Of a stretch of DNA of 23,925 nucleotides, positions 3,291-22,884 are shown in pieces (the stretch's first letter is position 1; each line of letters starts with the position of its first letter). The notes below the pieces were generated by a model. That model saw nothing but the letters and a program-made list of their open reading frames with translations. It was not told the origin of the DNA and searched no databases. The stretch covers positions 1 to 23,925 of IMG/VR virus record IMGVR_UViG_3300030328_001844; one strand, written 5' to 3'. The position numbers and the translations under genes are program-made. The DNA is from a virus.

Positions 3291-5036
3291 ATGAAACGAA
3301 GATTGTTTTTAGATATAGAAACACCAATGATAACTGGAGGTACTTTACCAGATAAGATATTTCTTATCGTTTGTAAGGATACTGAGAGCAAACAGTTATT
3401 TACATTTACTGAGGATAAGTTTGATGAGTTTAAAACTTTAGTCAGTAGCTACGATGAATTCGTAGGTCATAATATAATTGGTTTTGACGCACCAGTTATA
3501 TATAAAGTGTTAGCTATTGACCTACATCAAGAGGGTAAGGTAATTGATACTTTAGTTTTGTCTCGATTATTTAATCCTGTTCGAGAGGGTGGACACTCTC
3601 TTAAATCGTGGGGAGAAACTTTAAGGTTTGACAAGTTAGACTTCAAAGATTTCTCTGCGTACTCTGATGAGATGCTAACTTACTGTATCAGAGATGTGGA
3701 AGTTACGGAGAAAGTTCTTACTTATTTAATAAGAAGACACCCTGACTTTTCAAAAGACGCAATTAGATTAGAACATGATGTATCTAGAATAATTGCAGAC
3801 CAAGAAAGAAATGGTTTTCTTTTTGATTTAGGTAATGCTCACCTATTATTGGGTCGGCTAAGAGAGAAGATAAACGAAATAGAAATAAAAGTAAAGGAAA
3901 GATTTATACCTTTACCTACCTTTATCAGACAAGTTAAACCTCGCTATCGTAAAGATGGCACACTAAGTACGGTTGGACTGAAGAATAGTCTGGGAGAGGG
4001 GTGGGAAAAAGCTACTGGAGAATTTTCTCTTATCGAAATGAAAGAGTTTAATCTTGGTAGTCGACAACAGATAGGTAGATATCTACAATACTTTGGGTGG
4101 AAACCTACAAAGTTTACTGACAAAGGTCATGTGATTGTAGATGAAAAAGTTCTGGAAGGGATTAAAGATATACCTGAAGCAGAACTTATTAAAGAGTTTC
4201 TACTACTGCAAAAACGAATTGCTCAAGTTGAATCTTGGGTAGAGGCAGTAGCAGATGATGGGAGAGTACACGGAAGAGTGATAACTAATGGTGCTATCAC
4301 TGGTAGAATGAGTCATCAGTCGCCCAACATGGCTCAAGTTCCTGCAGTGTATTCTCCCTACGGAACAGAATGCAGAGGACTATGGGTAGTTCCTGAAGGC
4401 TACAAATTAGTGGGAGTAGATGCTTCAGGACTTGAATTAAGAATACTTTCCCACTACATGAACGATAAGGAATATATAGATGCTATCATTAATGGAGATA
4501 TACACACTACAAATCAAAATCTTGCTGGGCTTAGCACAAGAGACCAAGCAAAGACTTTCATCTATGCCTTCATATATGGGGCAGGCGATGAAAAACTCGG
4601 AACTATCGTTGGAGGGAATAGACATGATGGGAAAAAGATTAAAGAAAGATTTCTCAGAGGTACTCCTGCCCTTGCAAACTTTAGACAAAGAGTGGGAAAA
4701 GCTACTGGAAAAGGTTGGCTCAGAGCTATCGACGGAAGAAGACTCATCATCAGAAACAGACACTCCGCCGTCAACACCTTAATACAAGGTGGAGGTGCTA
4801 TCGTAATGAAGAAAGCACTAGTCTTACTTGATGATTACATAAGACAAAATAAGATAGATGCTAGACCAGTTGCAAATGTTCACGATGAATTTCAGTATGA
4901 GGTTTACGAAGAACAAGCAGATGACTTTGGTAAACTAGCAGTCAACTCAATAGTAAATGCAGGTGTCGAACTTGGTATTCGATGTCCTTTAAATGGAGAA
5001 TATAAAAGTGGGAACAACTGGCAAGAAACACACTAA
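3291..5036 (+). CDS. family A DNA polymerase with 3'-5' exonuclease (T7 gp5-like)
   Basis: The replicative polymerase. Exonuclease residues: FLDIET (D8, E10), HNIIGFDAP (D66), YCIRDVEV (D135). Polymerase: TGRMSHQSPNMAQVP (338-351), motif A VDASGLELR (D377), motif B RDQAKTFIYAFIYG with R417, K421, Y425 and Y429 spaced exactly as R518, K522, Y526 and Y530 in T7, and motif C VHDE (H531, D532, E533). The tyrosine at 425 matches the T7-type discriminator position. At 581 aa it is about 120 residues shorter than T7 gp5, and the thioredoxin-binding insertion is probably missing, so it may not use host thioredoxin as clamp (inference). GGCGACAAT before the start matches the primase-helicase start region. 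Its 3' end overlaps the exonuclease gene. Confidence 0.97.
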   Translation: MKRRLFLDIETPMITGGTLPDKIFLIVCKDTESKQLFTFTEDKFDEFKTLVSSYDEFVGHNIIGFDAPVIYKVLAIDLHQEGKVIDTLVLSRLFNPVREGGHSLKSWGETLRFDKLDFKDFSAYSDEMLTYCIRDVEVTEKVLTYLIRRHPDFSKDAIRLEHDVSRIIADQERNGFLFDLGNAHLLLGRLREKINEIEIKVKERFIPLPTFIRQVKPRYRKDGTLSTVGLKNSLGEGWEKATGEFSLIEMKEFNLGSRQQIGRYLQYFGWKPTKFTDKGHVIVDEKVLEGIKDIPEAELIKEFLLLQKRIAQVESWVEAVADDGRVHGRVITNGAITGRMSHQSPNMAQVPAVYSPYGTECRGLWVVPEGYKLVGVDASGLELRILSHYMNDKEYIDAIINGDIHTTNQNLAGLSTRDQAKTFIYAFIYGAGDEKLGTIVGGNRHDGKKIKERFLRGTPALANFRQRVGKATGKGWLRAIDGRRLIIRNRHSAVNTLIQGGGAIVMKKALVLLDDYIRQNKIDARPVANVHDEFQYEVYEEQADDFGKLAVNSIVNAGVELGIRCPLNGEYKSGNNWQETH

Positions 5037-5898
5037 GACTTTAGATACTTTAGTTGAAGATATTAATAGTGTATTAACAGACATATCATCAGGAATTAAA
5101 CCTGATGTAAAAGAAGAACAGTTAGATAAGTTCTTAAACAATACTAAGTTAGCTTTACTTGATTGGCTTGAGCCTCGTAAGAGTTCAGGTAAAGGTTTAA
5201 GAATGTCTGTGATTGGTAGACCTGCTCGACAACTTTGGTATGATAATCATATCGAAAGAGAGACAGAAATACATGACCCTTCTACCCAATTAAAATTTTT
5301 ATATGGTCATATACTAGAACATTTACTTTTATTCTTGGTTGAATTATCAGGACACGAAGTAACTGCACAACAAAAGAAAGTTCTTGTTGAAGATGTTAAT
5401 GGTCATATGGATTGTAAGATTGACGGAGAAGTTGTTGATGTTAAGTCAGCTTCACCAATGTCATTTAAGAAATTTAAGAATGGTACTTTATATGAAGATG
5501 ACCCATTCGGATATGTTGCCCAACTTGCAGGGTATGAACACAATGAACCAAGTAATAATGGTGGATTGTTTGCAGTAAATAAATCATCAGGTGAGATTGC
5601 ATTGTTTAGACCTGATGAACTAATGAAACCAAATGCAGAAAAATTAATTAAAGATTTAAAGGAGAAACTAAAAGCTAATGAACCACCTGAGAAATGTTAT
5701 CAACCGATTCCTCACGATAAGACTGGAAACTTCAAGCTTCCTATTGGGTGTGTGTACTGTCCTCATAAGTTTATTTGTCATGGGGATTCTAATGACGGCG
5801 ACGGACTTAGAGTATTTAAATATGCAAACACAAATATATTCATGACAACGGTAGTTAACAAACCTAAAGTTGAAGAGATAACAGAAAGGTATAAGTAA
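5008..5898 (+). CDS. PD-(D/E)XK exonuclease (Cas4/RecB-like)
   Basis: Likely the phage DNA-end exonuclease, the functional place of T7 gp6, for primer removal, recombination or host DNA breakdown. With the GTG start, motifs are RMSVIGRPARQLWYD near 65-79, then GHMDCKIDGEVVDVKSAS (D135, D144-V-K146) and the YVAQLAGY helix (QxxxY). Near the C-terminus, GCVYCPHKFIC (C-x2-C-x5-C), with an upstream Cys in KCYQ, could bind an Fe-S cluster or zinc as in Cas4/AddB-type nucleases. I chose GTG at 5008 because GGAG ends nine bases before it; an ATG at 4993 has no such site and would add five residues. It overlaps the polymerase end by 29 nt. Confidence 0.85.
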   Translation: MGTTGKKHTKTLDTLVEDINSVLTDISSGIKPDVKEEQLDKFLNNTKLALLDWLEPRKSSGKGLRMSVIGRPARQLWYDNHIERETEIHDPSTQLKFLYGHILEHLLLFLVELSGHEVTAQQKKVLVEDVNGHMDCKIDGEVVDVKSASPMSFKKFKNGTLYEDDPFGYVAQLAGYEHNEPSNNGGLFAVNKSSGEIALFRPDELMKPNAEKLIKDLKEKLKANEPPEKCYQPIPHDKTGNFKLPIGCVYCPHKFICHGDSNDGDGLRVFKYANTNIFMTTVVNKPKVEEITERYK

Positions 5899-6131
5899 TG
5901 TATTTTATAATCACGGCAATGTTATTCTTTAGTAGTACTGACCAAGTTATATATACTCAGTATGATAAAGCTACATTCGATTCTTCCAACACTTGTCAAG
6001 AATTTTTGTTCCAGAATAAGGTACAGTTATTAAAAGAACTTTTTGCAGAGCATAATAAGAATGATGATATGAAAGGATTTGAATTCTTTTGTGAAAATAG
6101 AGATATAATATTAGAGGATGTTCACTTATGA
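5898..6131 (+). CDS. small exported or membrane-anchored two-cysteine protein (77 aa)
   Basis: The start overlaps the exonuclease stop by one base (TAATG) and the stop overlaps the next start by four (ATGA), so translation is coupled on both sides. The N-terminus (MYFIITAMLFF) is hydrophobic and looks like a short signal or anchor. Then comes a polar domain with two cysteines, C33 in SSNTCQEFL and C65 in FEFFCENRD, 32 apart. The same plan occurs in the gene at 9976 and, more loosely, the gene at 23606. If exported, the cysteines could form a disulfide. I recall many similar tiny proteins in marine phages, none with a known function. Confidence 0.7.
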   Translation: MYFIITAMLFFSSTDQVIYTQYDKATFDSSNTCQEFLFQNKVQLLKELFAEHNKNDDMKGFEFFCENRDIILEDVHL

Positions 6132-10829: not shown

Positions 10830-11264
10830 TTATTTTATTTTAATTGTCTTACTCTTCTTTTCTTCAGGAAGATTAAGTTTCATCTTAACTAAAAGGATAC
10901 CGTCTTTAAACTCTGCATCCTTTACTTCAAGATGTTCTGCAAGAGTCCATCGTCTAGTGAAAGCTCTCTTGGCTATTCCTTTATGAAGGAAACTTTCTTC
11001 CTCATCTTTAGTCTCCTTAGAAGCTGAGACAGTTAAGACATCTTCTTTAACTTCAACATCGATATCATCTTTAGTGAATCCTGCTAAAGCCATTTCCAAT
11101 TCATAACCATCAGTACCAATCTTACGAATATTGTAAGGTGGGTAACTCGGTGCTTCAAAGTTTGACATTGAAGACAGTTGGTCAAAGATAGAATCAAAGC
11201 CGACTGTTAAGTTTTTAAATGGGTCTGCATTAAATACCAGACCTCTTGTTGTAGGTATATTCAT
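10830..11264 (-). CDS. small heat-shock protein (Hsp20, IbpA-like)
   Basis: An ATP-independent holdase that keeps unfolded proteins soluble. The alpha-crystallin domain spans about residues 38-135, with PPYNIRKIGTDGYELEMALAG at its start, FTRRWTLAEHLEVKDAEFKDGILLVKM in the middle and a C-terminal I-x-I tail (IKI, 141-143). Length of 144 aa is normal for IbpA-type chaperones. GGAG lies six bases before the ATG. Marine T4-like and pelagiphage genomes also carry Hsp20 genes; a role in virion assembly or host stress is proposed but unproven. Here it sits between the virion proteins and the holin-like gene, suggesting late expression. Confidence 0.95.
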   Translation of the reverse strand: MNIPTTRGLVFNADPFKNLTVGFDSIFDQLSSMSNFEAPSYPPYNIRKIGTDGYELEMALAGFTKDDIDVEVKEDVLTVSASKETKDEEESFLHKGIAKRAFTRRWTLAEHLEVKDAEFKDGILLVKMKLNLPEEKKSKTIKIK

Positions 11265-11305: not shown

Positions 11306-11345
11306 TTTAAGAAGCTATACCTTAAGCCTTCTTAAATCTTTTTTT
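11306..11345 (+). terminator. possible rightward rho-independent terminator
   Basis: TTTAAGAAG (11306-11314) and CTTCTTAAA (11328-11336) are a perfect 9-bp inverted repeat with a 13-base loop, followed by TCTTTTTTT on the plus strand. It would stop rightward transcripts that read past the convergent junction at 10215. The stem has only two G-C pairs and the T-run also encodes Lys codons on the minus strand, so this may be incidental. Confidence 0.35.
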
Positions 11346-13046
11346 GTCTAGCAATCCACCCCTTTTAAAGCTAAACCCAATACTAGTATTAATCTCTCCA
11401 TCTTCATTAATAGTTATTTTTGGCTCTGCATTTAGATATTTATTTCCTACAAAACCTGTAACATCTGTTCCTATTCCTATATTAAATCCTTCTTCAGTAT
11501 TATAACCTCCTACAACATTTAGACCATCTGTCCAACCACCAACTTGTGTCCAACCACTCATTGGTGTATTAGTATAATTAGCTCCCCAACCTGTCTTATA
11601 TGATGTTTCTATTCCAACATTACTATTATCTAAATTATAAGAAGCTTCTGTAGAAGTCATGTCTGTGTGATAACCTGCTTTAATTGAAGTATCACTATCA
11701 GTAAAGTTTCCTTCTTCTATACTACTAAATGGAGTTACACTTTCGAGACCAAGTGTCCCAAAATTACCTGCAATATCCCAACCAGTCTCAATTCCACCAA
11801 CATATCCTTCGCTAGTTACATTAGCATATGTACCAAGAGGGTCATATCTAATATCGGCAGGGCTTAAATTAGAGTATGTTTTCCACCCTAAAAATTTTGG
11901 AGTATAATTTTTTTTATCTTTTTTTTCTTCCTGGACACCTATTTTAGAAGTCTTTGCAGTAGTACCTATATGAGGATTTACTGGAGTTTTACTTACTCCA
12001 AAATCAGGTTGACTTGCATCTGCTCCTCCACCCTTTCCCTGATTAGAACTACTAGAACTACTAGAACTACTAGAACTACCTTGGTCAGCTCCACCTCCGT
12101 GTGGGTTGCCACCTTGCGATGAACTACTTTTACTTTTACTTCTACCTCTTCCTCTATCTCTTGGAGGATAAGCACGAATACCAGACTTAGTCATTTCTCC
12201 TGTTCCACCTGCTTTCTTTAACATGTCCGCTTCGTTAGGAGTAATGTAAGCAAGTTGATGTCCTTTAGGCGCAACAGCATTTAAAACATTAGCCATTTGT
12301 TTTTGTATAGAAATATTAGTTTCTGTAGGTTTTACCATAGCTCCCCCTAAATTCATCTCTGGTCTTTTAACTGGGGTTATTACTTTTTCTTTTGTTGGTT
12401 TTTTAACTGGCACTACATTAGGACCTAGAACTTTATTAACATAATTCAAAGTTTCTTCAGGTAAACTATTTCTTTTAATCCCCTCTTTATCAATCCAGTA
12501 ACCTTTTTTCTTAAACCTTGTGTACCTTGAAGGGCCAAAGTTGTAGGCGGCAACAGCATCTCTTTCATTTCCATAATGTTTAACTAATCCTTTTATATAT
12601 GAAGTTCCAAACTCAATATTTTTTTCTGGATTTTTTAAATCTTCTTCAGTTAAAGGAATAAAATTTTTCTCACTTATCTTTTTTCCTTTGTTATCTATAA
12701 TATATCCTGGATAAGCACTAGCAGTTCCTGGCATAATCTGCATTAATCCTATAGCTCCTTTATTTGAGGGAGGAGTATTTGGATTAGCACTACTTTCAAC
12801 TTCAATAATTCTTTGGATTAAAGGGTCATCAGACCAAACACGAAAACCATCTTCATATCCTCCACTATTATATCCCTTCCTTCCTAAGAATTCTGAATAT
12901 ATAAATCGTGGGTTACCTCTTTGATTTGAAGTAGAGTATTTTCCTACGTCTGAACTTTCAGTGTTCTTTAAACCATATGCTTTATTGCCCACTTGAAAGA
13001 ACTGGGATAAAAGTTTCTTTGTTGACATTGGGTTATCGTACCACAT
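11322..13046 (-). CDS. virion-type lytic transglycosylase with beta-barrel-like C-terminus
   Basis: It likely cuts peptidoglycan during DNA entry, like the transglycosylase domain of T7 gp16. The SLT domain spans about 72-210, with catalytic E84 in RIIEVESSANP, then GAIGLMQIMPGTA (97-109) and AVAAYNFGPSRY (165-175). A low-complexity Gly/Ser region (about 295-345, including 11 serines in a row) links to a C-terminal part, about 385-565. That part alternates aromatic/aliphatic with small/polar residues (GIETGWDIAGNFG, VGIETSYKTGWGANY, FNIGIGTDVTGFVG, INTSIGFSFKRGG), a pattern typical of membrane beta-strands. The start at 13046 has GAAGG six to ten bases upstream; MSTKK six codons on is an alternative. 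It starts two bases after the 1552-aa gene. Confidence 0.8.
   Translation of the reverse strand: MWYDNPMSTKKLLSQFFQVGNKAYGLKNTESSDVGKYSTSNQRGNPRFIYSEFLGRKGYNSGGYEDGFRVWSDDPLIQRIIEVESSANPNTPPSNKGAIGLMQIMPGTASAYPGYIIDNKGKKISEKNFIPLTEEDLKNPEKNIEFGTSYIKGLVKHYGNERDAVAAYNFGPSRYTRFKKKGYWIDKEGIKRNSLPEETLNYVNKVLGPNVVPVKKPTKEKVITPVKRPEMNLGGAMVKPTETNISIQKQMANVLNAVAPKGHQLAYITPNEADMLKKAGGTGEMTKSGIRAYPPRDRGRGRSKSKSSSSQGGNPHGGGADQGSSSSSSSSSSSNQGKGGGADASQPDFGVSKTPVNPHIGTTAKTSKIGVQEEKKDKKNYTPKFLGWKTYSNLSPADIRYDPLGTYANVTSEGYVGGIETGWDIAGNFGTLGLESVTPFSSIEEGNFTDSDTSIKAGYHTDMTSTEASYNLDNSNVGIETSYKTGWGANYTNTPMSGWTQVGGWTDGLNVVGGYNTEEGFNIGIGTDVTGFVGNKYLNAEPKITINEDGEINTSIGFSFKRGGLLDKKRFKKA
12045..12080 (-). repeat. 9-bp tandem repeat encoding poly-Ser
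   Basis: AGAACTACT repeated four times (last copy with one change) on the plus strand, encoding the serine run at about residues 322-333 of the transglycosylase protein. Such short tandem repeats can gain or lose units by slippage, changing linker length without shifting frame. Confidence 0.85.
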
Positions 13047-13047
13047 A

Positions 13048-16000
13048 TTAAACCTTCTTTATCATTACTGCACTACCATTTATTTTATAACTACTAGGAA
13101 TTTTAGATATTTCAAATCCATCTCCTAGTATTGATTTTATATAATCTAGTAGTTCATTTATTTTAAATCCTTTTTGAAAAGTTTCGTTGTCACCTTTCTT
13201 CATAACAAAACCATCATTCAATTTTCTTAATGGGTTTCCTTCTATTATAGGTCTAGTATTTATAATTGCTACTCCATCATCAGCTAATAATTTTCCAATA
13301 TTTTTTACAACCTCTGCTCTATTAGATGGATTAGGAATAACATTTAATACAGCATGACTTATAATAGCTTTAAATTTATTTTTACCTTCTACTTCTATTA
13401 AAGTTTTTTCATTTTTATATTCAGGTACTTTTCCTTTATAAGTAATGTTATTGTGTTTATAAGAAAGAGCTTCTAAATCTTTATTTGCTTTTGCAAATGG
13501 TTCAAAACTTTTTGTCTTACCTAATTTTTCTAAAACTCTAGAGCCTAATCCTAAACCAGAACCATAATCTAATATATCTATGTTTTCAAAATTTCTAAAG
13601 TTAATTCCTTTTTCTTCTAAGAAAGGAACATACTTCTCATAAGTTGCTACTGTATTTTTTATCTGAGTAGCTCCAGGATTAATTTTTTTCGTAGCTACTT
13701 TAGTAACTCCTTTAGTTGATGCTTTACTTATAGCTTTACCAACTAACCCTCCTAAAGCAAAACCTATTTCTGAACCAGAACCAAAACCTAAAGGAATACC
13801 AAAACCTAAATCAAAATCAGGATTTAATGGGAAATCTCTTTCCTCTACAGGGTCATAGTTAAACCACCATAGTTCTTCAGGAAAAGCATTCTCCATCATT
13901 CTTCTATATTCAGGAGGTATTATCCAAAGATTTGTGTTTTCCATCCACTCTAAACCTATATCTGCCAAAGGCCTACCTGATGCTACTTCTTTAGGTAAAC
14001 TGAAAAGACTTGTTATAGTTTCAGCACCGGGAAAAAAGTTAAGAGGTTCTCTAGGATTATAAGTAGCATAACTATATACATTACCAGCTAACCATCCTGG
14101 ATTACCTGACAACATAATACCATCAGCTAGAGCATCTTGTGGTGATGAATCTTCCCATTGAAATCCAGTCTTAACCCATCTTCTAAGTTGATGTAAAGCT
14201 GTAAATACAGGTATAGTCATTAACATTTTTACTGCTAATCTAGCTTCACCATTTTCTATTCTTTGTAGTAGTGCATTTGTTTGAGAAGACTTTGCTTGTG
14301 CCCAAGAACTAAACTGTCCTAATAATCTTAATGTAGGATTTTTTGATTGAGTAAATAACATTCTATTTCCAACAGCAGGAATGATAGCATCTCTATCCAT
14401 AGCAACTCTTCCTGAATATGACATTAATCTACTTCCTAAAGTATCTGCCTTTGCTTCTTTCCAGTTTTTAAAAGTACCAAACTTTAGAATCTCATTTAGA
14501 TTAGTAATTCTACCATCAGCATCAGTTTTAGCTATACCCATCTTTATAGCTCTATCATATAATCTTCTAGCCTTTCTACCTACAATATTCACATAAGGTA
14601 GAGCAGCCAATTCTCCTAAACTTCTTCCATTAACTTCTGTAAATCTTACAATATCTCTAGCAAGATTTAAACCATCAATAGCTCCAAAGTTAAAAGCAGT
14701 TCTTCTTCCTAATTCAGTAACATCTTGTAAACCTACAAGTTTAAAAAAATGTTCATTACCTTTAGATAAAGCTCTTAATAAAAGGTTTGGGTCACCTTCT
14801 TCAATAAAAGCACTAGAAGATAATTCTCTTAAAGCTTTCTTTGCTACATTATCATGATGTAAATATAAAACATCTGCTGGTTGGTCTGTAATCTTACGAG
14901 GTTTAGTAGTAAAAGGAAGTCTTCTTGGCATATTAACAGTAGCTGCTGTTCCTTGCATCCAAGTTTTAAAGTAATAACTATTTTGGAATGTTTGAACAAT
15001 ATCACCAAGGTTTGCTAATGAGACTGTACCCATTAATCTTGTGTTAGTTAAGAAAGAAACAAGAGCTGCAGTAGTTCTTTGAATTCTACCTGCCTCAGCT
15101 CCATGTCTACCGAAGTAAGCATGAACTCCATCTATCATAGCTCTTATATCATTCTGTTCTCCTTTAGAAGTATTTATAAATCCTTGGTTTAAATACTGCT
15201 TACGCAAATTATCTTTTAAACGTATTAAACCTTCTCCATTTTTTCCAAATACTTTAGAAAATTCTACAGATTTTGTACTTTTATTTACCATATTTAAAAG
15301 AACTGCTGATACATCATTTACAAAATATTTACTTAAAGGCCCTTCTACTAAATCATAACTACCTTGTAACATTCTATCTAGTTCTACATGTTCAAGAATG
15401 TCAGTACTAGTACTTTTTGGAAGGATTTTCAGATGTTCTTGTATAGGTGTTTTAAAAGTAAGAGTAGCATGTCCTTTTTTATCTACTCCTTGTGTTATTA
15501 AATTCTCATAATCATTTTTCATAACACCATGATAATACTTTGTAGCTGCTCCTTTAAAATCTGATAATTTTTTATTGTACTTCTTACCTTTATTTTTTAT
15601 ATCAGACCTAAAATTTTTCTTAGCTTTATTATATAAAACTTTTTGTATATCTTTTATAAATTGTTCTTTATTCTTTGAAATAAAAACTTTGTTATGAACA
15701 CGAGGAAAATAATTTTCTATTATTTCTTTAGGTGATATACCACCTTGTATTAAATAATTCTTATGTACTTCTAAAAATTGATTAATTCTTTTAGATAAAG
15801 CTTGAGAATCTTTTACAATAGTTGTACCATTTACTTTATCTAAATTTTTTAATTCTTTTAATGTAGTTGTTCTAAAAGTTTTTCCTCCATCGTCAGTAAG
15901 AGTTATAATACTTTTACTTTTTGTTCCTCCTCTAACAAGAGACATTGCAATTTGTTGAATCTGTGGACTATTATAAGCGATATCATCAATAACACCCACC

Positions 16001-17706
16001 ATTTTATCATCTCCAAATAATAAGACTTTAAAATTATCTAGTGCTTTACCTGCATTTTGTTCTACACTTGATGTCCCACCTTTATAACTCTGAAATAGAA
16101 GATTAGAAAATCTTCCCATGACAGACCCTCTACCTTCTAATCTTGTAGCAAGAGTCATACCTGACCAAGTTTTTAATTTCCACATTCCGTAATGAGCGTG
16201 TTCTCTAATAGCTTTACCAAAAACATTATCAGCTACTTTTTTAGGTAAATACTTCGGACCTTGAATAAGTAGACGATAACCACCCATAAGCATAGCTCCA
16301 CCTATAGCCCAGTTAATCATGTCTTCGTTATCGTCTCCAGCGAGGACACCAAACATTCCACCAACCACTCCTCCAAAAGTAGGATAAACAGTGGATGCAA
16401 GAATACCTCTTATAACTTTATCACTTAAAGCAGCAGCTCCTCCTTTAGCATATAGTTGTTTAGTTATTTCTCCTATATACTCTCCACCTGCAGATGTTAA
16501 AGCTTTTATAGCATTATCATATTCATCAGCTACTTGACTCTGTAATGTTTTTTGTGCTTTAGATAATTCTACTCTACGATTTATAAGTAAATCTTTCTTT
16601 TTTAAACCAGTATCTTTAAAATTTTCTATCCATTTTTTTTCTAACTTAGTTTTCTTATCAACTAAGCTATCAAGAGTTTTATAATTTTTTAAAGTAGGTT
16701 TAAAATTTTTAATTTGTTTTGAAAGTTGATTAAAAGTTTTAGTGTCTGTTTTAGCATCATCAAATAATTTTAACATTCTTTGATATCTTTGAAACTCAAG
16801 AGTATTATCTTGTAGTGCTTGTATCGCAGCTTTTACTGAAGGTGTTGTAGCTATCTTTTGAATCTTATCTAAAGATAAATTTGAAGTAATATTTCTTTCA
16901 TCTATTTTATTTATAGCAGCTTTTATCACATCATCAGATATAGCTTTATTAGAAAACAAAGTAGGGAATGCTTTATTAAGACCCATTCTTCCTGCAGTTC
17001 CTATACCTGGGATAGCAGCGCTTAAGGCAGCTCCTAAACCTACTGATGTTCCCCATATTTTAGGGTCAATCCTACCTTCTTGGTCAAGCATTCTTATACC
17101 CATGTCAGCACCAGCAGTTGCTCCTCCTAATCCAGCTAAAGCACTTCCTGATTGTAACATAGATTTCCCATACTGTCCAGACTTCCAAGCTAATGAACCA
17201 GCTTTATAAGCTTTACCTCCCCAACCAATCCAAGGAATCCAAAGAATAGGGTCAGCCATAATTGTAGCCATCTGTCCGCCTATTACAGCGATATCACTAT
17301 CATATTTTCCATCTTTAAATTCAGGAAACTCTTCCCAAACTTCTTGCATATGTTGATTCCAGGCATCTCTACTTCTTTCTTCATAAGTATCTCCTGTAGT
17401 TCCCCAGCCTGTAGCAGCAGTAAAGAATCTATAAGCACTACCAAGAGTCATGCTTTCTTTTGCCATACCATACTGTGCTTTTCTTGTTTCATCTGGTGCA
17501 TCACCAACAAAAGAAGAAACATTAGATGGTTGTTGAGATGAATAACTAGGAATAGTAAGAGTATTCTTTTGTCCTAACCATTCCTCATATTCTGAATCAG
17601 TATCAGGAGTAGTAGGGGTAGTAGGAATAGTAGGAATAGTAAGATTATTCTTTTGTCCTAACCATTCCTCATATTCTGAAGATGTTTGTTGAATATTATC
17701 TGTCAT
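13048..17706 (-). CDS. giant internal virion-type protein with C-terminal SAM methyltransferase domain
   Basis: 1552 residues, beside the transglycosylase gene, in the place where T7-like phages encode ejected core proteins. The N-terminus carries a duplicated segment (SEYEEWLGQKN twice, 28 residues apart). Gly/Ala-rich hydrophobic stretches follow at about 140-215 and 430-485, then a long helical body. From about 1310 a hydrophobic Gly-rich run (LGFGSGSEIGFALGGLVG) and a basic linker lead to a class I methyltransferase: motif I ILDYGSGLGLG (1378-1388, D1380), acidic position FEP (E1402), and ISHAVLNVIPNP (1449 on). The DPPY-type motif of DNA amino-methyltransferases is absent, so the substrate may be protein, RNA or a small molecule. 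No Shine-Dalgarno is obvious. Confidence 0.85.
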   Translation of the reverse strand: MTDNIQQTSSEYEEWLGQKNNLTIPTIPTTPTTPDTDSEYEEWLGQKNTLTIPSYSSQQPSNVSSFVGDAPDETRKAQYGMAKESMTLGSAYRFFTAATGWGTTGDTYEERSRDAWNQHMQEVWEEFPEFKDGKYDSDIAVIGGQMATIMADPILWIPWIGWGGKAYKAGSLAWKSGQYGKSMLQSGSALAGLGGATAGADMGIRMLDQEGRIDPKIWGTSVGLGAALSAAIPGIGTAGRMGLNKAFPTLFSNKAISDDVIKAAINKIDERNITSNLSLDKIQKIATTPSVKAAIQALQDNTLEFQRYQRMLKLFDDAKTDTKTFNQLSKQIKNFKPTLKNYKTLDSLVDKKTKLEKKWIENFKDTGLKKKDLLINRRVELSKAQKTLQSQVADEYDNAIKALTSAGGEYIGEITKQLYAKGGAAALSDKVIRGILASTVYPTFGGVVGGMFGVLAGDDNEDMINWAIGGAMLMGGYRLLIQGPKYLPKKVADNVFGKAIREHAHYGMWKLKTWSGMTLATRLEGRGSVMGRFSNLLFQSYKGGTSSVEQNAGKALDNFKVLLFGDDKMVGVIDDIAYNSPQIQQIAMSLVRGGTKSKSIITLTDDGGKTFRTTTLKELKNLDKVNGTTIVKDSQALSKRINQFLEVHKNYLIQGGISPKEIIENYFPRVHNKVFISKNKEQFIKDIQKVLYNKAKKNFRSDIKNKGKKYNKKLSDFKGAATKYYHGVMKNDYENLITQGVDKKGHATLTFKTPIQEHLKILPKSTSTDILEHVELDRMLQGSYDLVEGPLSKYFVNDVSAVLLNMVNKSTKSVEFSKVFGKNGEGLIRLKDNLRKQYLNQGFINTSKGEQNDIRAMIDGVHAYFGRHGAEAGRIQRTTAALVSFLTNTRLMGTVSLANLGDIVQTFQNSYYFKTWMQGTAATVNMPRRLPFTTKPRKITDQPADVLYLHHDNVAKKALRELSSSAFIEEGDPNLLLRALSKGNEHFFKLVGLQDVTELGRRTAFNFGAIDGLNLARDIVRFTEVNGRSLGELAALPYVNIVGRKARRLYDRAIKMGIAKTDADGRITNLNEILKFGTFKNWKEAKADTLGSRLMSYSGRVAMDRDAIIPAVGNRMLFTQSKNPTLRLLGQFSSWAQAKSSQTNALLQRIENGEARLAVKMLMTIPVFTALHQLRRWVKTGFQWEDSSPQDALADGIMLSGNPGWLAGNVYSYATYNPREPLNFFPGAETITSLFSLPKEVASGRPLADIGLEWMENTNLWIIPPEYRRMMENAFPEELWWFNYDPVEERDFPLNPDFDLGFGIPLGFGSGSEIGFALGGLVGKAISKASTKGVTKVATKKINPGATQIKNTVATYEKYVPFLEEKGINFRNFENIDILDYGSGLGLGSRVLEKLGKTKSFEPFAKANKDLEALSYKHNNITYKGKVPEYKNEKTLIEVEGKNKFKAIISHAVLNVIPNPSNRAEVVKNIGKLLADDGVAIINTRPIIEGNPLRKLNDGFVMKKGDNETFQKGFKINELLDYIKSILGDGFEISKIPSSYKINGSAVMIKKV
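17549..17680 (-). repeat. 48-bp direct duplication at the 5' end of the giant gene
   Basis: 17549-17596 and 17633-17680 are identical at 47 of 48 positions, 84 bp apart, and encode the repeated SEYEEWLGQKN(N/T)LTIP motif. The spacer is itself repetitive (Thr-Pro rich). Near identity implies recent duplication or gene conversion. Confidence 0.9.
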
Positions 17707-17714
17707 GATTATTT

Positions 17715-19793
17715 TTAAGCAATATCAAAGTTACTTAAATTAGTTGATAAAATTGATTTAGCAGTTTGGTCTGGAGTATTATCAGTTACTTTCTGAAGTT
17801 CAATTGAGTAAACTTTATAACCATACTCATTAGTATTTTCTACTACAACTGGTTTATATGTATCTCCTTCTACTGTATTAAATTCTTGATTTATATCTAT
17901 AGTTTTAGTTCCATCTTTAAATTTTGTAGCATTAATATCATTAACAGATACTTTTTTATTATTAAAAGTTTCTATAAATTTATTAGAAAGTAATCCTATA
18001 CCTGATAACTCAGTGAGAGTATCCCAGTTTTGTCCAACTCCCATCCAAGGAGAACCTATCTTTTTAGTATTGGAATTGTAACTATACTTTTTATATGTTC
18101 CATCCTTATCTTCATCTATATACATTGGTGTATCTGCTGGAATAGTTTGTTTCTTTCCATCAATATTAACGACTATACTACCATCTGCATTTTGTTTTAC
18201 AAGCTTAGGAATTGAAGTAGAGTTAATTACTTGACCAGATGTAATAATTTCCTCTTCCTCTACTAATGGAGGTTGCTCTTCCTCTACTAATGGATTTAAA
18301 ATAGATGGAGGCCCTTCTGGTAAAGTCTCGTTTAACTCTTTAGATTGATTAAATAAATCTGTTAAAAGATTTGAAGATTCAACTGCCATTATATTATTAA
18401 ATGCATTACTAACATCACTATAATTAATAGGGTTCCAAATCTCTGTCTTATTCTCAGACTGCCACTTTGCCGCAAGGTCTATTTCTAATTTATTTTGGAG
18501 AGCACTAAAAGCTGATAGAGCAATACCTGCATCTATATCTTCTTGTGTAGCTAAAGATATTTTACCATCTTCTTGTACAGTAACGAGTGTATCATGTAAT
18601 TTTTCTAAAGATTTATTATCAATTACATTTTGAGGAATTATTATTGGTCTTACCTTAAAAGAATCTGCCCAGAATTTAAAGTTATCTACTTCAAATCGTA
18701 CAGTTCTTCTATTAATATGTTGAATAGTCATATCTTTTACTGCATTTCCTGTAGCAAACGATTGGAAAGTCTCTAATGCGCTATCTGGGGTAAGCGTAGG
18801 AGCAAGATATATCTGTGTATAAAGTGCATCAAAAGAGTTTTTCATAAGAGGAAGTACTTGTTTATAATACTCCATTCCTAAAGGACTCATTCCTATCACT
18901 ACTTTCTTACCCATAGACAGTTGTTCTTTATCATACTCAAATAAAGCATCCAATTCTCCTTGTGGCAGCTTTAAACTTCTTATCATTATTTCCCTGATAT
19001 TTGCATAGTCCTTTTCCGCAGACATTCCTGGCATTTGCCAAGCTAACCACTTATTCCAAGTTTCATCTAATCCAGGTACACTCTCAATAAAAGCAGTAAA
19101 GTTTTCTGTTACTTCTTTAGAGTTAAGATTAAGGCCTTCAATAATACTTTCCACCTCTTCTGGTATTTTATTCCAACTCCATTCAGTAGGAATTTCTCTA
19201 TACTCTTTTAATTTATCTAGAGCATTGTTAGTTCCTGTGCTTAAATCATCTTGAAGAGATGCAAGAATCTCTGTTTCAGACTTATTGGTTTTACCTAACC
19301 ACCCACGAATTCTTTCTGTTAGAGGGCCTTGTAAATCTTCTGCTTTTACCATAGCTTCATTATATTTTGTTTGGTCAAAAAATTCTCCCCACTTAGGAGC
19401 AACAGGTTCACTTAATCCTTTATATACATATTGTCCCTTTTCATTTTCTTCTACTTGACCTGAATAAAACTCTATAATTTTATTTCTAGAATCTTCATTA
19501 CTTAACTCAGACCAACTAACACCATCATTTAAAGCTAACTGTTCAGCTATTTGAGTTTTAGTTGCATTACTACCTAAAGATTTAAGAGAGTTATTTATTT
19601 TATCATATCTATCTACTTCACTATAAAATCTATTTTCAGCTTGTCCATGTCTATTTACAGCAGTCATATAATCAAGTTTAAACTGCTCCATAATACGTTC
19701 ACCTACATCATTAATTCTATCTGGTCTTGCTTTCTGGTCATCAACCAGCATACTAGAAAAAACATTAAGTGCATCTTTAGCTATATTACCCAT
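17715..19793 (-). CDS. large virion-associated protein candidate (692 aa)
   Basis: It lies directly before the 1552-aa gene (8-base gap) and one base after the 203-aa gene, in the position of T7 gp15 (internal core protein). The sequence is mainly helical and hydrophilic with no signal peptide. The first 200 residues are charged helices (LDYMTAVNRHGQAENRFYSEVDRYDKIN). About residues 505-525 hold a Pro/Glu-rich hinge, and the C-terminal 170 residues are beta-rich (SIVVNIDGKKQTIPADTPMY). I know no family for it. The internal-virion role is from gene order only. AAGAGG before the ATG serves as ribosome site; a TATAAT there is coincidental. Confidence 0.65.
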   Translation of the reverse strand: MGNIAKDALNVFSSMLVDDQKARPDRINDVGERIMEQFKLDYMTAVNRHGQAENRFYSEVDRYDKINNSLKSLGSNATKTQIAEQLALNDGVSWSELSNEDSRNKIIEFYSGQVEENEKGQYVYKGLSEPVAPKWGEFFDQTKYNEAMVKAEDLQGPLTERIRGWLGKTNKSETEILASLQDDLSTGTNNALDKLKEYREIPTEWSWNKIPEEVESIIEGLNLNSKEVTENFTAFIESVPGLDETWNKWLAWQMPGMSAEKDYANIREIMIRSLKLPQGELDALFEYDKEQLSMGKKVVIGMSPLGMEYYKQVLPLMKNSFDALYTQIYLAPTLTPDSALETFQSFATGNAVKDMTIQHINRRTVRFEVDNFKFWADSFKVRPIIIPQNVIDNKSLEKLHDTLVTVQEDGKISLATQEDIDAGIALSAFSALQNKLEIDLAAKWQSENKTEIWNPINYSDVSNAFNNIMAVESSNLLTDLFNQSKELNETLPEGPPSILNPLVEEEQPPLVEEEEIITSGQVINSTSIPKLVKQNADGSIVVNIDGKKQTIPADTPMYIDEDKDGTYKKYSYNSNTKKIGSPWMGVGQNWDTLTELSGIGLLSNKFIETFNNKKVSVNDINATKFKDGTKTIDINQEFNTVEGDTYKPVVVENTNEYGYKVYSIELQKVTDNTPDQTAKSILSTNLSNFDIA

Positions 19794-19794
19794 A

Positions 19795-20406
19795 TTATAC
19801 CTCTTCCTTTTCTTCTTCTATTCCTGCTTCTTCTGCAGTAGGCAACTCTTTTACTTTTGATAATAAAGAAGGAGCTACACTAGTACGTCTTATTTGTTCT
19901 GGTTTTAATTTATTAAATTTCATAGACTCATCCATATATGTTTCAGTATCTTCTTCTGAAGGTTCATCTGAATCTTCTCCTTCATAAATAACTGGTTCTA
20001 TTCCTGCTTGTTCTGCCATTGCAATTAAAAGATACATGACTGGTTCAATTAATAATAACATTAAATCAGGATTAATCTTTCCTTTAGATACAGAAGTATA
20101 AAGAAGTACTTGAGCTATTTCTGTAATAGGTGTTTTATCTAGAAATTTTATTAATAGTTCAATATATCTATCTCTATCTTCTCCAAGTTGTACAAATAAA
20201 TCTTCCATGAAAGGTTGAACTTCTGTATACTCAGGAGGAGTTTCCCAAGGATACTTTTGTTCTGGACTAGTAGTTAATGATTCTCCTGGAGTAGGAGCAT
20301 CAAACGGATTAATTGAAGTACCATCTTTTAGAGGTATCATTCCTGCAGCTTCAGGTTGAGCCTGTTGGTTTAGTTGTGCAGGTATGTTTACGTTTTCTTC
20401 TTCCAT
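19795..20406 (-). CDS. conserved marine-phage virion-type protein (203 aa)
   Basis: The pattern of an N-terminal Gln/Pro-rich tail, MIPLKDGTSINPFDAPTPGESLT, then YPWETPPEY and a helical core (EIAQVLLYTSVSKGKINPDLMLLLIEPVMYLLIAMAEQAGI) matches a structural protein I remember from several marine phages. It is unnamed there, so treat this as recall. The helix KINPDLMLLLIEPVMYLLIAMAE is hydrophobic enough to interact with membrane or other subunits. The C-terminus is acidic. AAAGGA lies 9 bases before the ATG, inside the 54-aa ORF. It heads the leftward virion cluster together with that ORF. Confidence 0.75.
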   Translation of the reverse strand: MEEENVNIPAQLNQQAQPEAAGMIPLKDGTSINPFDAPTPGESLTTSPEQKYPWETPPEYTEVQPFMEDLFVQLGEDRDRYIELLIKFLDKTPITEIAQVLLYTSVSKGKINPDLMLLLIEPVMYLLIAMAEQAGIEPVIYEGEDSDEPSEEDTETYMDESMKFNKLKPEQIRRTSVAPSLLSKVKELPTAEEAGIEEEKEEV

Positions 20407-20609: not shown

Positions 20610-20975
20610 TTAGTTTAGCAGAGGATTACTTGACTGTACTTTTAATTCCTGTATAAGTGCCTCAACATAAGAAATACCTGCAGAATTAATTTTTATTTCA
20701 GCTTCTAACTTTTGTATTTTTTCTTTTAAAATACCTATCTCTGTATTCAAAGTTTCTTTTAAAAGACTTACTTCAGTATTTAAAGATTTATTAACTTCTT
20801 TTATTTCTTTATGGACTTCAGATAAATCTACAGTTTGATTTACGACAAATTTTTTATTTTCAATAACATCTAATCTTTGATTAAACGTACCCCAAGTATA
20901 AAAACCACCGCCAATGGCAGATACTAATGCGATTAGCATTCCAATAGTTTGTAATTTAGATATCATTCCTTGCAT
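20610..20975 (-). CDS. membrane-anchored coiled-coil protein (121 aa)
   Basis: An N-terminal membrane helix (IGMLIALVSAIGGGFYTWG, about 11-29) is followed by a long heptad-repeat region (EVHKEIKEVNKSLNTEVSLL through KEKIQKLEAEIKI). The layout, one N-terminal anchor plus an extended coiled coil, resembles i-spanins topologically, but no partner o-spanin is seen next to it. Similar proteins recur in marine phages in my memory without a function. GGAG lies seven bases before the ATG. It overlaps the 642-aa gene by 20 nt and is the last gene before P4, so it belongs to the upstream leftward transcript. Confidence 0.7.
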   Translation of the reverse strand: MQGMISKLQTIGMLIALVSAIGGGFYTWGTFNQRLDVIENKKFVVNQTVDLSEVHKEIKEVNKSLNTEVSLLKETLNTEIGILKEKIQKLEAEIKINSAGISYVEALIQELKVQSSNPLLN

Positions 20976-22884
20976 TTAATAACTCCTTAAATTTTAAATA
21001 TGCTTTTAATGTTTTATCTTTAGCTTTTATAAGTTCAACTTCATACTGTGCAACTGGGTCTGTACTTGATAAAGCTGGTTGTGTATTATAAATATCTTTA
21101 TTATAGCTAGCTAAATTTATATGCCCATTAAAAAAATTCATATCACCACTAGGTAATTGTCTTGTATCAAATAAACCAGCATTCATATTAAAATAACTAG
21201 ACATATCTGGTTGACTATCTGTCATTTCTTTAGCAACTATTTCATTTACTGCATTTAAAGTTAATTCTATTCTTTGCATTTCATTTGAAATTTTACCTTG
21301 AATAACTTTTTCTAATGCTGCAATTTTAATATCTAAATCAACTTCCACGCTTTTTCCAGTGGCTGGGCCTGAAGTTCCTGATTCTTCTGATGCAGCTCCA
21401 CCTTTAATTGGTTTCTCGATAACTTCTTCTTGTTCTTTATTATCTGTTGCTTCTTTCGGTTCGTCTGTAGTAGACTCTTTGCTACTGGGTTGCTCTTCAA
21501 TTTGTTCATCTTTAGTCTCTTCAATGGATTCTTGTTGTGGTTCTTCTTCTTGTACTGGTTCTTCTTTAACCATTGCTACTTCTTCCAGAGGCTCTTCTTC
21601 TTTTACCACTTCTTCCATTGGTTCTTCTATAACTTCTTCTACTATTTCAATAGGTGCTTCTTCTTCAGTATACTCTTCAAACATTTCTTCAAACATCTCT
21701 TCTGCCATTTCCATATCTATTTCTTCCATTGGCATCTCATCAAACATCTCATCAAACTCTTCTATGAAAGCTTCATCAGTAAAAGCTTCTATATACATTT
21801 CTTCTTCAAAGTACATCTCTTCTTCAAAGTATTCTGGTTCATCAAAGTATACTTCTTCTAGTGGAGGTAGCTCATCAAACATTTCCATTTCTGGCATTTC
21901 ATCAAAGAACTCTACTTCCTCGAAGGCAAGAGTTTCTGGAAAAAATTCTTCCATGTCAAACTCTTCGTAATAGTTATCTTCAAAGTACTGCTCTTCAAAA
22001 AAAAATTCATCAAGTGCTAAATAGTCCTCTTGTAAATCAAATTCTTCTTCTTCAAAATAGTCATCATTAAAATCATAATCAAAAACTATATCATTTAAAA
22101 TAGGTTCTGGTTCGTAATAATCATATTCTATATCTTCAAAATAAAAATCATTTTCAAAAGTATCTAGTATAGTTTCAACTTCTGCTATCTCATCTTGACC
22201 CACACAAGTAGGTGGAGTTTTTTCCCAACAGTATTGAATTGTACTTACTGTTGTAGAAGAAAGAGCATCGTAAGTTAGTTTTAATTCTGGGTCTTTTACA
22301 TCAACCCCAGCATGCCCTCCGTTATAAGAAGCTAAGCCTTGTATATCAAAACTAAATCTAGCAGTTAAAGAACCATGAGTGTTTTCTGAGTTTGGTGCAA
22401 TAATTAATGTATTAGAATAATTATTAAACTGATAGTTATGATTAGTTGTATCTTCTAAAGTTATACTCTGTGTTGTAGTATCAATACCATTAGTTGCTGT
22501 TTGCGTCATAGTAACAGTGGATGCTTGAGGATTCCACCATCTTATATCTGCAGATAACTCAGATGTTAGACCTTGTTGTAATTCTTGTTCAGTTAATATG
22601 CCTTGAGAGTTAATGGTAGTTTCTGCATACTTACCATCTTTACCTGTTAGATAAATTGATTCATTAATATCCGATGAATCTGGAAACATTGTTCCTTCCC
22701 AGCTTCCATCATTCCATTGCTGGGATATTAAATTATCAGTAGTAACTGAATTACCAGTAGTTATAGTTGTGATAGTTGTAGTATCTCCAACATTAGGAGT
22801 ATCTTCTTGAATAACTACAGTATCAGCATTACTTAGTGCCGAGATTAATAATGTTGCCGTTACCGTCAGTAATAATTTGTGCAT
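20956..22884 (-). CDS. secreted hyper-acidic protein (642 aa)
   Basis: The N-terminus MHKLLLTVTATLLISALSNA then DT is a textbook Sec signal peptide with an A-type cleavage site after residue 20. Residues 21-220 are Thr/Asn/Ser-rich and beta-like, ending with a two-cysteine hairpin (C219, C227). Residues 223-427 contain no Lys, Arg or His at all and are built from Glu, Asp, Phe, Tyr and Met (EEMFEEMFEEYTEEE type). A Pro/Glu/Lys repeat-like part (428-490) and a C-terminal domain (510-642) with a coiled coil follow. GAGGAG precedes the ATG. I know no function. It may bind cations or coat the envelope or virion; that is speculation. Confidence 0.8.
   Translation of the reverse strand: MHKLLLTVTATLLISALSNADTVVIQEDTPNVGDTTTITTITTGNSVTTDNLISQQWNDGSWEGTMFPDSSDINESIYLTGKDGKYAETTINSQGILTEQELQQGLTSELSADIRWWNPQASTVTMTQTATNGIDTTTQSITLEDTTNHNYQFNNYSNTLIIAPNSENTHGSLTARFSFDIQGLASYNGGHAGVDVKDPELKLTYDALSSTTVSTIQYCWEKTPPTCVGQDEIAEVETILDTFENDFYFEDIEYDYYEPEPILNDIVFDYDFNDDYFEEEEFDLQEDYLALDEFFFEEQYFEDNYYEEFDMEEFFPETLAFEEVEFFDEMPEMEMFDELPPLEEVYFDEPEYFEEEMYFEEEMYIEAFTDEAFIEEFDEMFDEMPMEEIDMEMAEEMFEEMFEEYTEEEAPIEIVEEVIEEPMEEVVKEEEPLEEVAMVKEEPVQEEEPQQESIEETKDEQIEEQPSSKESTTDEPKEATDNKEQEEVIEKPIKGGAASEESGTSGPATGKSVEVDLDIKIAALEKVIQGKISNEMQRIELTLNAVNEIVAKEMTDSQPDMSSYFNMNAGLFDTRQLPSGDMNFFNGHINLASYNKDIYNTQPALSSTDPVAQYEVELIKAKDKTLKAYLKFKELLNARNDI

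What the first reader, a model, noticed from the sequence alone, without database searches (positions are those of the whole stretch)
13048..13644. Methyltransferase domain on the tail of a giant, probably ejected virion protein
After a hydrophobic run and basic linker, residues about 1355-1552 form a class I SAM methyltransferase with intact motif I and SAM-ribose acidic residue, but no DPPY motif. Enzymes carried on virion proteins act at once on entry (compare P1 DarB and 'polyvalent' ejected proteins). This one could modify host defence or translation factors, RNA, or incoming DNA ends before any phage gene is expressed.
Basis: partly seen in the sequence, partly recalled or inferred. Interest (0 to 1): 0.8.

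Follow-up and report, generated by a model that had tools for sequence, protein, structure and literature searches.

The report
Swappable methyltransferase on phage ejection protein
A marine phage carries a methyl-transferring enzyme as a swappable module on the large protein that it probably squirts into its host with its DNA, and related modules sit on quite different phage particle proteins, which points to an unstudied class of particle-borne weapon or tool.

Summary
The domain is real. Residues ~1341-1552 of the 1552-aa protein (window 13048-13689, minus strand) model as a class I SAM methyltransferase (pLDDT 93) with motif I and the ribose-binding acid, no DPPY; 15 residues are invariant in 35 aligned sequences, window included. 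The carrier looks like a podophage gp16-type ejection protein: phrog_342 match, gp14/15/16-like gene order and sizes, and the top three VIA rows for its weakly modelled core are ejectosome proteins of PhiM1, E1004 and T7 (Z 12.9, 11.8, 10.8). The domain is a mobile cassette: of 76 core relatives with a complete 3' end, 16 carry it in the ORF, 2 in a following ORF, 58 show none; near-identical copies sit on cores only 37-45% alike. Relatives sit on other particle proteins or as genes between terminase and portal. Nearest cellular kin found: the Dnd-associated putative methyltransferase (hhalign 95-98%). Substrate, virion presence and timing are not shown; relatives' tails often carry peptidoglycan hydrolases, so delivery of this tail to the cytoplasm is inferred and doubtful.

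The parts
13048..13689 (-). class I SAM methyltransferase cassette, residues ~1340-1552
   Evidence: Pfam Methyltransf_23 over cut-off for the isolated piece; AF2 pLDDT 93; 15 invariant residues in 35 aligned sequences
13687..13797 (-). hydrophobic run and basic linker, residues 1304-1340
   Evidence: hydropathy scan, 19-residue mean 1.21 at 1304; sequence
14017..17529 (-). gp16-type ejection-protein core, residues 60-1230
   Evidence: 26 aligned viral relatives; phrog_342 at residues 140-331, E 2.5e-8
14368..16161 (-). part of the core that aligns with solved ejectosome proteins (residues 516-1113 at the widest)
   Evidence: VIA-align 8vb2_A Z 12.9, 9vvp_O Z 11.8, 7eyb_I (T7) Z 10.8; model pLDDT 57 overall
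11322..13046 (-). SLT transglycosylase gene; in T7 this activity is the gp16 N-terminus, here it is the next gene
   Evidence: Pfam SLT E 1.1e-20; phrog_342 positions 32-248, E 5e-15
17715..19793 (-). gp15-like gene (692 aa)
   Evidence: place and size only; blastp 22% to the gene in the same place in L014, no match to T7 gp15 at E<=0.01
19795..20406 (-). gp14-like gene (203 aa)
   Evidence: place and size; 43% and 53% identity to HTVC103P gp54 and HTVC115P gp42, no match to T7 gp14 at E<=0.01
10830..11264 (-). Hsp20 gene, conserved neighbour of this module
   Evidence: Pfam HSP20 E 2.5e-18; also next to the ejection module in HTVC103P, 115P, 104P

Best explanation
The last ~210 residues are an active SAM-dependent methyltransferase built as an exchangeable effector cassette onto a gp16-type ejection protein. 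The protein is made late, packed into the head on the portal and expelled with gp14- and gp15-like partners at infection. The cassette then refolds, takes host SAM and methylates a target in the first minutes. The likeliest target is nucleic acid (incoming DNA or a host RNA) and the likeliest purpose is to blunt host defence. Shown here: predicted fold, conserved pocket, resemblance of the carrier to gp16-type proteins, cassette exchange, spread over unrelated particle proteins, kinship with the Dnd-associated family. Inferred: packaging, delivery to the cytoplasm, activity, target, purpose.
For: Fold and pocket. Carrier: phrog_342 hits split over this gene and the next; three best VIA rows all ejectosome proteins, next row Z 8.7. 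Cassette: of 76 complete core ORFs 16 carry it, 2 have it in a following ORF, 58 show none in the fetched stretch; L023/L034 core 37% but methyltransferase 96%, L031/L034 41/98, L042/L045 45/94, and the reverse L034/HTVC103P 72/62. Purifying selection: dN/dS under 0.25 in 11 of 14 pairs with a ratio, 17 tried. Other carriers: Myrna gp97 with head maturation protease (phrog_18299, E 1.7e-18), L057 internal virion protein (phrog_6651, E 1.6e-37), CRP-3 gp36 with an endolysin stretch; separate or short genes between terminase and portal (both neighbours checked for L066). Virus-linked: 357 viral loci against 8 in a collection of 84,980 genomes with somewhat stricter patterns, none in plasmids with the single window query. 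Kin: TIGR04096 matched by 30 of 35 rows, best E 4e-10; hhalign 98.5% and 95.3%.
Against: No virion proteomics or assay. The same tail position in relatives holds peptidoglycan hydrolases (Pfam matches among 42 tails: Glucosaminidase 9, Phage_lysozyme 5, Phage_lysozyme2 4, Pesticin 2, SLT 1; a tail may match more than one). PMC8954989 (passages) has T7 gp16 crossing the inner membrane twice; from that I infer that a C-terminal tail would end in the periplasm, away from SAM. The core model is weak (pLDDT 57), Foldseek alone gave no match at E<=1e-3, hhalign with the single T7 gp16 sequence was negative, and VIA's own note says Z under about 13 in helical proteins may be chance. Structure does not pick a substrate (rows tied). 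Three of 14 dN/dS values are 0.42-0.75. The cassette is absent from most core relatives examined, so it is not essential.
Confidence: 0.52

Rival explanations
1. The enzyme works in the producing cell during assembly: it methylates DNA being packed, or particle proteins, and its presence in the virion is incidental.
For: SAM is plentiful there (established knowledge); in the L066 group the gene lies between terminase and portal; Myrna's copy is fused to a head maturation protease.
Against: Cassette exchange between divergent ejection cores and its absence from 58 of 76 core relatives do not suit an assembly need; fusion to the ejected protein would be needless.
Confidence: 0.22
2. It is an envelope-side or single-turnover enzyme: like the hydrolase cassettes in the same tail it works in the periplasm or at the membrane, with SAM carried in the particle, on peptidoglycan, lipid or the channel itself.
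For: Hydrolases occupy the same tail in relatives; a lysozyme-like stretch (my reading) follows the methyltransferase in HTVC103P.
Against: SAM is cytoplasmic (established knowledge); some other carriers are head proteins without an evident envelope task.
Confidence: 0.13
3. A delivered small-molecule methyltransferase that alters a metabolite or a defence signal nucleotide.
For: Foldseek and VIA neighbours include glycine and sugar N-methyltransferases.
Against: Kinship with the Dnd-associated family; the neighbours are tied with tRNA enzymes and show fold only.
Confidence: 0.1
4. A decaying or non-catalytic methyltransferase fold kept as a binding or structural module.
For: Function untested; three pairs show dN/dS of 0.42-0.75.
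Against: SAM-site residues invariant in 35 of 35 sequences, including E1402 and others outside the search patterns.
Confidence: 0.03

Closest known systems
T7 gp16 / podophage ejectosome proteins (PhiM1, E1004)
   Same: Core fold segment (Z 10.8-12.9), gene order after gp14- and gp15-like genes, phrog_342 match
   Different: SLT transglycosylase is in a separate next gene, and a methyltransferase is added at the C-terminus; the review PMC8954989 has no occurrence of the word methyltransferase in its main text
TIGR04096 dnd_rel_methyl, Dnd-associated putative methyltransferase
   Same: Related domain by hhalign (95.3%, E 2e-8 to L182, a member over the cut-off; 98.5%, E 1.6e-15 to a below-cut-off relative in L096), shared VLN/VIN, ER and DG..TFQK..E marks
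   Different: Far below the family cut-off (21.9 against 150 bits); the match covers only part of the model; virus-borne; NCBI calls the family putative and its substrate is not known to me
P1 DarB and polyvalent-protein adenine methyltransferases
   Same: Methyltransferase on a large phage protein; mosaic multidomain carriers. [quoted passage not shown]
   Different: DarB class has NPP(Y/F) and a SWI2/SNF2 partner (PMC5512222 passages); here neither was found
Pelagibacter phages HTVC103P and HTVC104P
   Same: Full-length homologues with the same domain, 28% identity over 95-96%
   Different: Annotated as hypothetical protein; lysozyme-like C-terminus (my reading) after the methyltransferase; HTVC115P's homologue shows no methyltransferase match

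Membership tests
Class I SAM methyltransferase | Rossmann-type fold | tested here: met
   AF2 pLDDT 93, VIA Z up to 14.8 to solved class I enzymes
Class I SAM methyltransferase | Motif I glycine loop and beta-2 acidic residue | tested here: met
   D1380, G1382, G1384, G1386, E1402 in all 39 rows
Class I SAM methyltransferase | SAM-dependent activity | not testable with these tools
   needs an assay
DPPY-type amino-methylating DNA methyltransferase (DarB class) | (D/N/S)PP(Y/F) after beta-4 | tested here: not met
   VLNV at that place in the window sequence
DPPY-type amino-methylating DNA methyltransferase (DarB class) | SF2 (SWI2/SNF2) helicase partner in the same protein | tested here: not met
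   Pfam scan of the whole protein at E<=1 shows none
TIGR04096 dnd_rel_methyl | score over the curated cut-off of 150 bits | tested here: not met
   21.9 bits for the 198-aa piece; no listing for the whole protein at E<=1
TIGR04096 dnd_rel_methyl | homologous methyltransferase domain | tested here: met
   hhalign 95.3% with L182, which scores 501.9 bits; pairwise hhalign E-values are not for a database search
TIGR04096 dnd_rel_methyl | dnd genes nearby | not tested
   no search for dnd genes was run
T7 gp16-type ejection protein | shared core (sequence profile or fold) | tested here: met
   phrog_342 E 2.5e-8; the first three VIA rows, from 570 aligned chains, are ejectosome proteins. Caution: helical, model pLDDT 57, Z under 13; Foldseek and hhalign with T7 gp16 alone were negative
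T7 gp16-type ejection protein | N-terminal transglycosylase in the same chain | tested here: not met
   SLT lies in the next gene; PMC8954989 says it is not conserved in P22 or Sf6 either (passage)
T7 gp16-type ejection protein | present in virion and ejected | not testable with these tools
   needs proteomics
Polyvalent proteins (PMC5512222) | several effector domains in one polypeptide delivered with the invading DNA | tested here: inconclusive
   the window protein has a core plus one enzyme; some relatives (L085, LS06) look richer, by motif reading only

The most novel reading that the evidence does not exclude
A virion-delivered cousin of the Dnd-associated methyltransferase that acts on the DNA backbone or on phosphorothioate marks, letting incoming phage DNA pass phosphorothioate-based or other restriction before any phage gene is expressed, and traded as a cassette among ejection, head and packaging proteins of unrelated phages.
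Probability: 0.1. Interest if true: 0.9.

Novelty: new variant of a known kind. Interest (0 to 1): 0.62.

Why it matters
Enzymes that ride in phage particles act before any phage gene is read, so they meet host defence first. Here a methyltransferase class different from the DarB type is exchanged among ejection proteins of HTVC103P-type marine phages and recurs on head, internal and packaging-region proteins of other phages, with kinship to an unexplained companion of the Dnd system. Finding its substrate would tell something about both. Cultured carriers exist (HTVC103P, HTVC104P, CRP-3, CRP-738, Myrna), so the test is feasible.

Tried and rejected
Single-protein queries found only the near-identical contig IMGVR 3300030450_001276; alignments were needed. 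PDB sequence searches gave only weak rows, the best about E 1e-3, methyltransferases for the most part with a dehydrogenase row between; for the core the best row was E 0.003 to an unrelated helical protein. hhalign of the core with the single T7 gp16 sequence was negative and Foldseek on the core gave no E<=1e-3; the ejectosome matches come from the VIA re-alignment alone. I took the substrate from no fold neighbour: METTL6, Trm9 and TylM1 rows are tied. The DarB-type reading was rejected on motif and partner. I thought the N-terminal part of the L053 group might be a nucleotidyltransferase because of a BFVD name; its sequence reads rather like a zincin (HEIQHYVQ), but neither Pfam nor PHROGs named it and a DNA search found nothing.

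Literature: searches returned no paper. Searches returned 3, 5 and 26 papers; of these I opened four, by passages around search terms only (PMC8528129, PMC6918029, PMC10504331, PMC11288001), and saw no mention of this domain there; the other listed papers were not opened. PMC5512222, PMC10853773, PMC8954989, PMC11440229 and PMC12810830 were also seen by passages only. Searches (39 papers; 134 papers, none holding TIGR04096 among the ten listed) were used as listings. The library holds open-licence PMC papers only, so absence in print is not shown.

In the tree I gave the label gp16-like to L016 and L047, whose ORFs are cut off at the 5' end and do not show the core, and to L020, whose copy is a separate gene after the core gene.

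Full report
What is there. The window is part of a 31.5-kb virus record. The gene at 17706..13048 on the minus strand codes for 1552 aa. Its last ~210 residues hit Pfam Methyltransf_23 above the curated cut-off when scanned alone (28.1 against 27 bits, E 2e-6; 23.4 bits in the whole protein). An AlphaFold2 model from 35 aligned sequences has pLDDT 93.0 and pTM 0.90; 309 PDB chains match at E<=1e-3, and the VIA rows for METTL6 (Z 14.8), Trm9 (14.2) and TylM1 (14.0) are tied.

The pocket. In 39 rows dereplicated at 85% identity (from 86), D1380, G1382, G1384, G1386, E1402, P1403, P1428, N1455, V1456, R1463, G1478, R1485, Q1511, L1527 and G1528 are the same in all rows, and the same 15 columns are invariant in the 35-row alignment of the window and 34 viral loci. 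Part of this is by construction: the scan patterns covered the motif I and QKGF stretches, but E1402, P1428, N1455, R1463, G1478 and R1485 lie outside them and a locus needed only one pattern. The place of DPPY reads VLNV. dN/dS was tried on 17 pairs: 14 gave a ratio, 11 of these under 0.25 and three 0.42, 0.45 and 0.75; one pair (window/L003) was identical and two were saturated.

The carrier. phrog_342, internal virion protein with endolysin domain, matches this protein at 140-331 (profile 313-429, E 2.5e-8) and the next gene, an SLT transglycosylase, at profile 32-248 (E 5e-15), as if a T7 gp16 had been split. Genes of 203 and 692 aa stand in the places of T7 gp14 and gp15 (196 and 747 aa), but only by place and size; neither matches T7 by blastp. 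The core model (residues 60-1230) is weak (pLDDT 57, pTM 0.42, mostly helical). Foldseek found nothing at E<=1e-3 and hhalign with the single T7 gp16 sequence was negative, yet the first three VIA rows, from 570 aligned chains, are all ejectosome core proteins: PhiM1 8vb2_A Z 12.9 (rmsd 5.4, 265 aligned), E1004 9vvp_O 11.8 (6.6, 266) and T7 7eyb_I 10.8 (6.5, 239), with the next row at 8.7. That these chains are the gp16 counterparts I take from their length (1101-1105 residues), the C4 label of 8vb2 and the use of 7EYB for gp16 in PMC8954989 (passage). Z under about 13 in helical proteins can be chance, but three members of one functional class on top is hard to get by chance. The record belongs with HTVC103P-type pelagiphages: HTVC115P, 104P and 103P share DNA at 70% identity with its other end and 103P and 104P are full-length homologues of the giant protein. 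PMC8528129 (passages) says HTVC103P-type phages have HMO-2011-type morphogenesis genes.

A cassette. 80 viral loci with the core motif were kept (of 167 found). In 76 the 3' end of the ORF is complete: 16 have the methyltransferase in the same ORF, 2 in a following ORF (L145, which is the L020 contig; L033) and 58 have no match (tblastn 1e-4) in the fetched stretch. Of 55 ORFs complete at both ends 12 carry it in the ORF. Loci were not dereplicated and include the window's near-copy. Of the 58 tails without it I scanned 42 (16 left out as near-repeats): Pfam matches are Glucosaminidase (9), Phage_lysozyme (5), Phage_lysozyme2 (4), Pesticin (2) and SLT (1), besides four families without an evident link. 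Order differs: core-methyltransferase (window), core-methyltransferase-lysozyme-like tail (HTVC103P, my reading), separate gene right after the core gene (L020). Over 136 pairs of 17 carriers core and domain identities correlate (Spearman 0.81), but L023/L034 have 37% core and 96% domain identity, L031/L034 41/98, L042/L045 45/94 (91 over a slightly longer stretch), and L034/HTVC103P the reverse, 72/62: the domain moves between cores. In the tree the copies I labelled gp16-type form one supported group with one other row (100/99; two of the 13 labels were assumed, see Tried and rejected), so they probably stem from one source and were then exchanged.

Beyond gp16. Of 357 viral relatives the best 80 were kept; 60 have complete ORFs: 21 of up to 300 aa, 11 of 301-599 and 28 of 1000 aa or more. 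Other carriers: Myrna gp97, whose N-terminus is a head maturation protease (phrog_18299, E 1.7e-18; it also matches tape-measure families and a DNA methyltransferase family by name, phrog_27806, E 4e-7, in the protease part); L057, internal virion protein (phrog_6651, E 1.6e-37); CRP-3 gp36 with an endolysin stretch; CRP-738 gp40 and L085 with DUF7178/phrog_3842; a 3103-aa protein of phage LS06. L053, L083, L085 and L088 gave no PHROG match that names a virion protein. In the annotated phage collection 12 records, 10 distinct phages, hold the domain. In L066 the neighbours on either side are a terminase and a portal protein. Of neighbours scanned from 20 hand-picked loci (94 proteins) the named families shown are mostly portal, terminase, head, head-tail adaptor, internal virion and tail proteins, besides resolvases, amidase or endolysin and a DNA-binding protein (25 of 48 and of 84 families are displayed). 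Eight relatives turned up in the collection of 84,980 genomes with somewhat stricter patterns, some of them distant, and none in plasmids with the single window query.

Kin. TIGR04096, the DNA phosphorothioation-associated putative methyltransferase, is matched by 30 of 35 rows (best E 4e-10); for the window the match is partial and far below its cut-off. Generic methyltransferase families match some rows too (CpaM 9, ArsM 6, UbiG 3). hhalign of the family with L182, a member over the cut-off (501.9 bits), gives 95.3% and E 2e-8, and with a below-cut-off relative in a proteobacterial MAG (L096) 98.5% and E 1.6e-15. These are pairwise values, not database E-values. Shared marks are VLN/VIN, ER and DG..TFQK..E. 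The function of TIGR04096 is not known to me, and one search listed no paper that I followed up.

How it probably works. Shown: an intact predicted methyltransferase on a protein that resembles gp16, mostly under purifying selection, exchanged as a module. Inferred: it is packed, expelled and acts early on nucleic acid to blunt defence. The hard point is place. PMC8954989 (passages) puts T7 gp16-C in the cytoplasm but has the protein cross the membrane twice, and relatives carry wall hydrolases in the same tail. If the tail stays outside, the enzyme has no SAM, unless it brings it or works in the producing cell.

Novelty. Particle-borne methyltransferases are known (DarB; PMC5512222 and PMC12810830, passages), as are mosaic ejection proteins. 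A methyltransferase of this class on an ejection protein, its exchange as a cassette and its kinship with the Dnd-associated family did not appear in the searches and passages named under Tried and rejected. I therefore call it a new variant of a known kind.

Noticed in passing
window 11322-11360 (end of the 574-aa gene) and the ends of 12 core relatives: A basic C-terminal tag of the type GGLLDKKR recurs at the end of different tail cassettes: 12 of 76 complete core ORFs and the window's SLT gene; L014's next gene ends in a similar GGLLDRSSKK. T7 gp16 needs its positively charged last five residues for infectivity (PMC8954989 passage); a loading or ejection signal is possible.
   Followed up: partly
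L177 1557-2012 minus (record 25456-25911, outside the window): 151-aa ORF in the stretch that matches HTVC115P DNA holding gp46, annotated as toxin-activating lysine-acyltransferase, inside the particle-gene module; possibly an acyl modification of a phage protein.
   Followed up: no
window 10830-11264: A small heat-shock protein (Hsp20) gene sits next to the ejection module here and in HTVC103P, 115P and 104P.
   Followed up: no
window 20956-22884: A 642-aa protein with a long glutamate/aspartate/phenylalanine-rich region and no Pfam or PHROG match at E<=1.
   Followed up: no
L053 1974-3083: 370-aa stretch with a zincin-like HEIQHYVQ motif (my reading) fused to the methyltransferase in 584-587-aa proteins of the group that in L066 lies between terminase and portal; no Pfam or PHROG name.
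   Followed up: partly
L008 gp40, L085, L007 gp36: The methyltransferase shares proteins with DUF7178 or phrog_3842, whose VT(V/I)DTH stretch recalls HhH-GPD DNA glycosylases (recalled, untested).
   Followed up: partly
L158 tail (3376-5913): Tail of a core relative without the methyltransferase carries a zincin-like HEFRHKAF motif (my reading).
   Followed up: no
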